A DNA stretch of 64,000 nucleotides from Metaphire vulgaris (taxonomy: Eukaryota > Annelida > Clitellata > Crassiclitellata > Megascolecidae), in assembly GCA_018105865.1 (NCBI GenBank), contig CM030842.1, forward strand, positions 14,398,867 through 14,462,866. The letters run 5' to 3'. The notes beneath the pieces were generated by a model. The model did not search any database. It was not told the DNA's origin and was given only the letters and a program-made list of their open reading frames with translations. The stretch's first letter is position 1. Every line of letters starts with the position of its first letter. Of this stretch, positions 49,001 through 53,061 are shown piece by piece. A program made the translations under genes and the position numbers.

Positions 49001-52000
49001 TTATTTCAGAGGATGTATGTGAAAATGTTCGTGGAATCATTAAGTTGTATACAGGAACTCACAACTTTCACAATTTTACTTCTGGAAAGTAAGTTTCTTT
49101 GCTCCGATCGTAACATTTTCATGCGAGTTTATCGCTCTTTCTGCTCATCTGGTTGCAAAGAAACCTTCAGTTTATAACAAACAACCTTCACATCTGAATA
49201 TTTGTGAAATCTTGTTTTTGAATTTAATTAAAGTTGCTTAACCCCTTAACTGGGGATCCCGGATATATCCGTCCATTCTACACTGAGTTACAGTTAAATA
49301 CACGGTTAAGGGGTTAATGCTTATACTATTCCTGTTGGATTGGTTGAGAATCTATTGGATTTAGATGATAGCATCCTATACAATAGTATTATTTCTCTTC
49401 AAATGAATGACTAATATTTCAATTTTTTTGTAGAAAACCTAATGACCCAAGTGCTAAAAGATACATTATGGAGTTTGCAGTAAGTAAAGTGTACAAGTTG
49501 TTTTATATATGGAATTACTCAAGTTATTTCATTAAAAATCTAGATTTACTTATTTCAGTTTGTATAGAATGTGTGCTCATCATATGCCAAGCACTAAACA
49601 GTCTTGATTTAAGTTTCAATTTTCCTGTAAATGAGATAGTTGAATAAAACTGATAAAATTGATAACATTAAGTGCTTTAGCAGTGATGGTATTATTTCTT
49701 ATCTGCACAGTTCACTGTTACCAGATTGGCTATTTTTCTGTTTTCAAAATCAGGTTGGGCAGCCTTTTGTGCGTGACGGTTTAGAATACGTAGTTCTAAC
49801 TGTAAGAGGTCAAAGTTTCATGATGCACCAGATCAGGAAGATGGTTGGTGAGTTGTAATAGATAACTAGCACATCATCATCACCAGCATCATCATCATCA
49901 CCACCACCACCACCATAATCATCATTATCATCATTATCATCACCATCATTGTCATCATGTCCTCTTTTCTTCATCTTCTGAAGGTGAGGTGGTAGAACCG
50001 ATGGTATAATTCCAGGTGTCTCTCTTCTGTTGCTCTTATAGCGGATGTTAGTTTCATCCCAGTCCAATCTTCTATGTTGTCTGTCCATCTGCAGTTTGGT
50101 CGACCTTATGTCCTCTTTCCAGACAATATACCCTGTTGTAGTTTTCTTTATATCAAGCCATCAAACTGACACATATTGGCTGCTTATTGTGTCTATTTAA
50201 GTATATTATGTATAGCATGTGTTACCCTTTGCCAATTAATGATTGCAAAATGACTCATTCTCCTTTGTGCCCTTTGACCCATGGGTCAACTGTGCAAGAT
50301 TAATTAATTACTCATATTGATTGATTGAATATACATTTGACAGTCATCTGTTGATATATTTATATGGTTTTAAAGGTATTTTTGCTGAAAGGCAAGTTGA
50401 TTTATGTGATAAATATACTGTAATGTCTGTCAGCAATCACACCATGTGGAATATTGGATTTATTGACACTATAACATAGTGATATTCTTTTGTGTGGATT
50501 AGTGTTGATAGGAAGTTTCTTGCTTAAGAACATGGACACGTGTATGCTGAACCACAAAAAGTGTTAATTGAGAATGTGATTATCATTTCAATTAGCAACC
50601 ACATTGTTTGCATTAATTATTTGGGGACTGTAGGTTTGACAATGGCCATTGTACGAGGGTTTGCGAACATGGACACGCTTAAAAGAAGCTGGGAAGTTGA
50701 AAAGGTTAACGAACTTGACTTTCCTGGAGTTTAAAGTTTCTAATTAAATTCTAAAAGTAGTTTTTGTTTATGAAATGCTTTCACATTGTGTGCAATCTTA
50801 TTTGTCAATGCAGCTTCTTATTTACTCAATACTCATCTGTCTAATTAGCATCAGAAGTAAGTTTTTATCGTTTCCCATAGCCATTGAAATTGCATTGATT
50901 TGGAGATGAAATATTGCTATTTCATGGAAAAAAGGTAAAAATTGTAATGGAATCAATTTAGAGCAGAGAGAATGTTGGGATTTCTGTTCAGGTCATCAAC
51001 GTATCACTTTGCTTGATTTGTACTTTGTCAGCGATTTTTAATGTTCTCTCAAAATATCAAAATATCCTTAATAGGTGGATGTTCCTAAAGCACCAGGACT
51101 TGGTTTAGTTCTTGATAAGCTCCATTACGACGCATATAACAAAAGGTTTGGAAACGATGGGATGCACGAAGCAATAGATTGGAGTCAGTACAAGGTATAC
51201 AGAATCTGTGCAAGTGGTAAAGAAATACATTGCGTTCAGCTGGCTTAACAGTCAGTGTTTATTCTAGACCTTCTCTGGGGGGGAAATCCCCCCCCCAAAG
51301 TTTTAAAATTCCCCCAACATTTTTTATATGTTGGCTGGGGTATGAAAATTCCCTCCCACAAAAGTGTGGAGACTCAGACCTTGTCCCCCAAACATTTCAA
51401 AATCCCCCCAATGTCAAGGTGGCTAGAATAAACACTGCTTAACAGTACTTCAGAGATTTGCAGAAATATTTGAAGAATCTATTTTCAATCATGTTTGGGC
51501 ATTTTGTTGAAAATAGCCGACCATTTCTTTAATGCCTGGTCTTTTGATATTTTTCGTGGTTGCAGGATGAAATAGAGCAATTCAAGGAGGAATTCATATA
51601 TCCAACAATTTTTGCGACAGAGAAGAATGAAAAATCATATCCTTGCCTATGCCATAAAAAGTTGGCTTTATGGTTAAAATATAATGCTGCAACTTTCAAT
51701 TTTATTAGCTTTTGACAAACATATTTCATAGTAAAAAATCTGTGAATCCCTTGCAAGCTAGCCTTTTCTGAGAATAGGACTTTTTCAGCATTCATATCAA
51801 TGGCATTCTTATATATTTGAAACATAAACAGGTCTTTTAATGGTGGAGTTTGCTTTTATGAAGAACTGCTTTCAGTTACATTTCCACTATTGCTTTCATA
51901 GGGGACTGTCCATTAATTACGTCAACAGAATGGGGGAGGGTGTTTGGAAAAGTTTGACAGTTGTTGATAGGGGGGAGGTCAAGAGAATTTGACATCAACA

Positions 52001-53061: not shown

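What the first reader, a model, noticed from the sequence alone, without database searches (positions are those of the whole stretch)
51637..52640. U12-type intron with AT-AA ends in PUS1
The donor ATATCCTT follows exon 13 with no mismatch to the U12 consensus, and TCCTTAA lies 11 nt before the only acceptor that keeps the PUS1 frame. That acceptor ends in AA, not AC or AG. U12 introns with AT-AA ends have been reported but are very rare.
Basis: partly seen in the sequence, partly recalled or inferred. Interest (0 to 1): 0.85.

Follow-up and report, generated by a model that had tools for sequence, protein, structure and literature searches.

The report
Minor-spliceosome intron with AT-AA ends
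A tRNA-modifying enzyme gene of an invertebrate animal, probably an annelid worm, carries an intron that looks built for the rare "minor" splicing machinery and appears to end in AA instead of the usual AC or AG; such ends are uncommon but already documented, so this looks like a good new example rather than a new mechanism.

Summary
PUS1 was rebuilt as 15 exons (43042-53061, 454 codons, open throughout). Intron 13 (51637-52640) starts with a perfect U12-type donor, ATATCCTT, and TCCTTAA has its last A 11 nt before base 52640; no other intron of the gene has that donor with a branch site at a workable distance. Joining 51636 to 52641 gives [12 protein letters not shown], gap-free in 118 of 120 listed homologues. 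No canonical pair in the ranges tried does this. U11, U12, U6atac and CENATAC matches exist in the genome. One claim is too strong: other in-frame acceptors exist (AT-AT 52643, AT-AC 52661), but AA at 52640 alone neither adds nor removes residues. [quoted passage not shown] No RNA was available, so use of the AA is inferred. The gene also has an AT-AC intron with a major-type donor and a GC-AG intron; an AG one base downstream (52641) would join exon 12 to exon 14 in frame.

The parts
43042..53061 (+). PUS1 (pseudouridylate synthase 1) gene, coding part, 15 exons, 454 aa
   Evidence: PF01416 58.6 bits. Exon ends were set by eye; the start codon at 43042 has little homology support.
51566..51636 (+). 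exon 13 (71 nt), ends in TC of a Ser codon (phase 2)
   Evidence: aligned in homologues
51637..51644 (+). U12-type 5' splice site ATATCCTT
   Evidence: 0 mismatches to RTATCCTT (consensus recalled); the genome's U11-like 5' end TAAAAGGGC can pair with TCCTT, one G-U included (by eye)
51637..52640 (+). intron 13, AT-AA, 1004 nt
51902..52311 (.). transposon-like element with 19-nt perfect terminal inverted repeats inside intron 13
   Evidence: 39 further copies at 82-85% among the 40 scored of 6480 candidates in the genome
52372..52452 (.). short palindromic repeat inside intron 13, related to 46358-46433 and others in this gene
52622..52630 (+). U12-type branch site GTCCTTAAG (TCCTTAA core 52623-52629)
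   Evidence: 2 mismatches, both at the ends, to recalled consensus TTCCTTAAC; the genome's U12-like RNA carries GAGTAAGGA
52639..52640 (+). 3' splice site dinucleotide AA, 11 nt after the last A of the branch core
52640..52641 (+). AG one base downstream: out of frame with exon 13 (stop right after one Cys codon), in frame if exon 12 is joined to it
52641..52812 (+). exon 14 (172 nt)
45775..46547 (+). intron 4: AT-AC with major-type donor ATAAGT and no U12 branch site in the scanned stretch
48337..49009 (+). intron 7: GC-AG (CAG|GCGAGT ... TTTCAG)

Best explanation
Intron 13 of this PUS1 gene is a minor (U12-type) intron. U11 pairs with TCCTT of the donor ATATCCTT and U12 pairs with TCCTTAA as branch site. 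The minor spliceosome joins base 51636 to 52641, cutting after an AA that lies 11 nt past the branch, so the intron has AT-AA ends and belongs to the AT-AN ('A-type') minor introns. The Ser codon is split TC|G, and any base after TC would give Ser. Shown: the motifs, the spacing, the reading frame, conserved residues across the junction, absence of a canonical solution in the ranges tried, and matches to machinery genes. Inferred: pairing, minor-spliceosome use and the exact 3' cut.
For: Perfect donor, 7-nt branch core and 11-nt spacing, inside the published 11-13 nt optimum (PMC3584512, passages). The AA junction gives a gap-free 12-residue alignment in 118 of 120 listed homologues; Met after the junction is M in 116 of 120, Ser before it S in 104 of 120, the Trp 3 residues later W in 118 of 120. 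Sliding the 1004-nt intron by -12 to +12 finds no GT-AG, GC-AG or AT-AC. U11 (96 bits), U12 (121.7 bits) and U6atac (best 100.5 bits) match in the same genome over Rfam's cut-off, as do three pieces of CCDC84/CENATAC within 5 kb (49.5, 43.3 and 30.5 bits, cut-off 25.3; two of the three stretches hold one stop). The four family searches matched in 0 of 14 control genomes. [quoted passage not shown] P0001, the closest homologue (72%), is 423 aa on a 1748-nt contig, so probably from an mRNA, and reads EKSMLNWLAT here.
Against: No RNA from this species was seen. An AG lies one base downstream at an equally good distance (12 nt). One base missing from the assembly next to the acceptor could turn the end into AG or AC without changing the protein, because TCN is always Ser. 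The branch site ends in G rather than C. No relative's DNA was available, so conservation of the intron is untested. The U4atac search did not complete.
Confidence: 0.82

Rival explanations
1. The intron is U12-type but ends in a canonical AC: 51637-52661 (AT-AC), in frame, dropping MLKWLAT.
For: Perfect donor, canonical AT-AC ends, frame kept.
Against: Acceptor is 32 nt past the branch, far from the 11-13 nt optimum; removes 7 residues, including a Met kept in 116 of 120 and a Trp kept in 118 of 120 listed homologues.
Confidence: 0.05
2. Mixed 3' choice: the minor spliceosome often cuts after the AG at 52641 (AT-AG), giving a frameshift, with AA used for the productive message.
For: AG lies 12 nt from the branch and 1 nt from the AA site; U12-type 3' choice is described as error-prone (PMC3584512, passage).
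Against: Gives a stop after one Cys codon; AT-AG is described as disfavoured. The productive message would still need AA, so this would add to the best explanation rather than replace it.
Confidence: 0.25
3. Assembly error: a base is missing at the acceptor and the real end is AT-AC or AT-AG.
For: Homology cannot see a base lost at the acceptor (TCN = Ser). Only one assembly was seen and no raw reads.
Against: The acceptor is not in a homopolymer; the assembly has long contigs (728 Mb in 246). The other option, an A lost from the A5 run of exon 13 with an AT-AG end, would give Ile at a position that is S in 104 of 120 listed homologues (reasoned, not run).
Confidence: 0.06
4. An extra exon between 51637 and 52640 carries the frame through other splice sites.
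For: The interval is 1004 nt and expression was not testable.
Against: One search found 118 of 120 listed homologues gap-free across the junction; 1 had an insertion (P0002, a model that repeats part of the protein; in the alignment its junction reads NKSMLQW) and 1 did not align to the end (P0072). 410 nt of the interval is a repeated transposon-like element.
Confidence: 0.02

Closest known systems
AT-AA minor introns of animals and plants (survey PMC10639083; passages seen)
   Same: Minor intron starting AT and ending AA; reported as the most common non-canonical pair of conserved minor introns; [quoted passage not shown]
   Different: Those came from annotated genomes with orthologous introns; here neither transcript nor orthologous intron was seen
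A-type (AT-AN) minor introns dependent on CENATAC (PMC8280824; passages seen)
   Same: AT-AA is listed among the A-type introns, 92% of which were affected by CENATAC depletion in human cells; CCDC84/CENATAC matches are in this genome
   Different: Dependence untested here; PUS1 is not named in the passages seen
AT-AC introns spliced by the major spliceosome (mentioned in a passage of PMC8280824; the ATAAGT donor pattern is recalled)
   Same: Intron 4 of this gene, with ATAAGT donor
   Different: A different intron of the same gene, not the one in question

Membership tests
U12-type (minor) intron | 5' splice site RTATCCTT | tested here: met
   ATATCCTT at 51637, 0 mismatches; consensus recalled
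U12-type (minor) intron | Branch site like TTCCTTAAC near the 3' end | tested here: met
   GTCCTTAAG, core TCCTTAA intact, 2 end mismatches; consensus recalled
U12-type (minor) intron | Short branch-to-acceptor distance (optimum 11-13 nt) | tested here: met
   11 nt from last A of core to 52640; optimum from PMC3584512 (passage)
U12-type (minor) intron | No marked pyrimidine tract before the acceptor | tested here: met
   GACGGGCTTAA between branch core and exon, by eye
U12-type (minor) intron | Minor spliceosome present in the genome | tested here: met
   U11, U12, U6atac over Rfam cut-off, CCDC84; U4atac search did not complete
U12-type (minor) intron | Splicing depends on U12/U6atac | not testable with these tools
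   needs an experiment
AT-AA subtype | First two bases AT, last two AA, supported by transcript | tested here: inconclusive
   Sequence and conserved protein junction fit; no transcript
AT-AA subtype | Orthologous minor intron in another species | not testable with these tools
   No animal genome other than G000 was found searchable here
PUS1 / TruA pseudouridine synthase | PseudoU_synth_1 domain and alignment to solved PUS1 | tested here: met
   PF01416 58.6 bits over cut-off 23.3; piecewise matches to PUS1 entries such as 4iqm and 9h51

The most novel reading that the evidence does not exclude
The AA|G acceptor is a shared, one-base-offset site for two spliceosomes: the minor one cuts after AA to join exon 13 in frame, and the major one can cut after the AG one base later to join exon 12 (GTATAC donor, phase 0) to exon 14 in frame, skipping exon 13. 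The AA end would then be kept because it lets both messages stay in frame, giving a PUS1 without 24 residues when minor splicing is weak.
Probability: 0.05. Interest if true: 0.6.

Novelty: new member of a known kind. Interest (0 to 1): 0.3.

Why it matters
AT-AA introns are easily missed by gene finders (recalled; PMC4176328 says non-canonical introns are a frequent source of misannotation, passage), which cuts off the end of the protein model. A clear case in a conserved gene, in an animal that appears related to a leech reported to have lost about 80% of its minor introns (PMC10639083, passage), is useful for testing which 3' ends the minor spliceosome and CENATAC tolerate. A gene with a U12-type AT-AA intron, a major-type AT-AC intron and a GC-AG intron is also a compact natural test of how AT introns are sorted between the two machines.

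Tried and rejected
Retrocopy with the exons already joined, as direct proof of splicing: a protein search of the whole genome gave 2 matches, both the window's own exons 13 and 14. Extra exon, slid boundaries and canonical pairs: enumerated and rejected. For first intron bases 51575-51712 and exon starts 52560-52719, 4029 in-frame stop-free pairs were found, 53 with canonical ends (34 AT-AC, 17 GC-AG, 2 GT-AG). Two of the 53 have zero length change (GC-AG 51686-52689 and 51708-52711), but both replace conserved residues with intron sequence. Seven of the 53 keep MLKWLATLP behind ...NEKS, but only with 6 or more extra residues (smallest: GC-AG 51645-52630, +6); three keep MLKWLATLP but cut into exon 13. 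ATATCCTTAATAG at 51062-51074 before exon 12: the core is 3 nt from the acceptor and the donor of that intron is GTTAAC, so taken as chance. PUS1 with 'minor intron' or 'U12-type' in the paper library: 2 and 3 papers, one of them in both lists; their titles and starts of abstracts do not point to a minor intron in PUS1, and the texts were not read. U12 with AT-AA and intron: 4 papers, of which 2 were looked at in passages and 2 were not opened. A first count of gap-free homologues on a multiple alignment gave 1 of 120 because columns opened by other proteins were counted; it was replaced by pairwise alignments. The same pairwise test gave 24 of 120 gap-free for intron 4 (95 deletion, 1 insertion) and 82 of 120 for intron 7 (38 insertion), so protein support for those two junctions is weaker. 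Rfam on the window at gathering scores: 0 matches.

Full report
The sequence. Base 51636 is the last of exon 13 (...GAA AAA TC), followed by ATATCCTT (51637-51644). TCCTTAA is at 52623-52629, and the frame resumes at G 52641 after AA. The joined frame reads ...[20 protein letters not shown] and matches solved human PUS1 ...ERDERSMAQWLSTLPIHNF.

The gene. With piecewise matches to solved PUS1 as a guide, I placed 15 exons by eye and joined them: 43042-53061, 1365 nt, open to a final stop. The protein has the Pfam pseudouridine synthase domain (58.6 bits) and 2789 homologues at E <= 0.001 among 7991 scored candidates, of which the best 120 were listed and used. The closest is P0001 (72%, a 1748-nt contig, no name). 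Among named ones the highest scores are a sea urchin model that repeats part of the protein (P0002, 51% identity) and the leech Helobdella (P0003, 64%). I infer an annelid. Of 14 introns, 11 are GT-AG, intron 4 is AT-AC, intron 7 is GC-AG and intron 13 is AT-AA.

Is the signal more than chance? Intron 13 has 0 donor mismatches and a branch-like 9-mer with 2; the other 13 introns have 2-7, and 3-5 in the stretch scanned (about 4-30 nt before the end). A first-order Markov model of the locus expects about 6e-7 of 14 introns to have an exact donor and the TCCTTAA core 8-20 nt from the end. ATATCCTT itself occurs 4 times on the + strand of the window and once on the other. The branch site alone would be weak evidence: 667 of 64000 + strand positions follow a TTAA-bearing 9-mer with at most 2 mismatches at such a distance, and intron 11 has TCCTTAA 3 nt before its end, too close to work by the published optimum and outside the scan.

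Is AA really the end? Sliding the intron as a whole by up to 12 nt either way gives no canonical pair. With the donor fixed, the AG at 52641 (12 nt from the branch) gives a stop after one Cys codon. AC at 52661 keeps the frame but deletes MLKWLAT and lies 32 nt from the branch. AT at 52643 keeps the frame but deletes Met. Ends at 52628, 52631, 52634 and 52637 (TA, GA, GG, CT) keep the frame but add 4, 3, 2 and 1 residues. Across the junction 118 of 120 listed homologues align without gap (1 insertion, P0002; 1 not aligned to the end, P0072). Residues: Met 116, Ser 104 (Val 10), Trp 118 of 120. So, with this donor, AA at 52640 is the only end that neither adds nor removes residues. Because TCN always encodes Ser, a base lost from the assembly exactly at the acceptor cannot be excluded by homology.

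The machine. The genome (728 Mb, 246 contigs) has one U11 match (96 bits), one U12 match (121.7 bits), ten U6atac matches over the cut-off (best 100.5 bits) and three matches to CCDC84/CENATAC within 5 kb, two of them with one stop inside the stretch, as expected if a match runs past an exon end, though this was not checked. These counts are lower bounds, since only 40-46 candidates per RNA family were scored. U11 starts TAAAAGGGC, able to pair with TCCTT of the donor. U12 carries GAGTAAGGA, the stretch that pairs with the branch site by established knowledge (role recalled). The U4atac search did not complete.

What is known. [quoted passage not shown] The CENATAC paper includes AT-AA in the A-type introns (PMC8280824, passages). 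The paper-library searches for PUS1 with 'minor intron' and with 'U12-type' showed no report of this intron in the listings; the texts were not read.

Beyond the finding. The same gene holds an AT-AC intron with donor ATAAGT and no U12 branch site in the scanned stretch (intron 4), the pattern of AT-AC introns handled by the major spliceosome (pattern recalled). AT-AC is the only zero-change canonical solution there (4 others within 6 residues), and GC-AG is the only canonical solution within 6 residues at intron 7, in the ranges tried. Protein support for these two junctions is weaker (24 and 82 of 120 gap-free). The AG at 52641 would join exon 12 to exon 14 in frame, skipping exon 13; two more AGs, 52650 and 52689, would too, of 9 tested, so this may be chance. 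Intron 13 holds a repeated element with 19-nt inverted ends.

Noticed in passing
window 45775-46547: PUS1 intron 4 looks like an AT-AC intron of the major spliceosome (ATAAGT ... TTTCCTGCAC), so one gene seems to carry AT introns of both classes.
   Followed up: partly
window 48337-49009: PUS1 intron 7 is GC-AG (CAG|GCGAGT).
   Followed up: partly
window 52640-52641: The AG overlapping the AA acceptor is in frame with the exon 12 donor, so a major-type exon-13-skipping message would stay open.
   Followed up: partly
window 51902-52311: Element with 19-nt perfect terminal inverted repeats; at least 39 other copies at 82-85% in the genome (40 of 6480 candidates scored).
   Followed up: partly
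window 46358-46433, 49240-49318, 52372-52452, 52835-52888: A short palindromic repeat (TTAACCCCTTAACTGGG...CCAGTTAAGGGGTTAA type) recurs in several introns of PUS1, partly by eye.
   Followed up: no
G000 C36, C6, C23, C13, C30 and others (L007-L014): Ten U6atac-like matches over the Rfam cut-off (46 candidates scored) against one U11 and one U12 match; some may be pseudogenes, and all counts are lower bounds.
   Followed up: no
window 20012-20343: TCCTTAA occurs 5 times within about 330 bases, probably a local repeat.
   Followed up: no
window 15124-15645 and 24184-24564 (minus): Open frames resembling reverse-transcriptase pieces of retrotransposons, by eye only.
   Followed up: no
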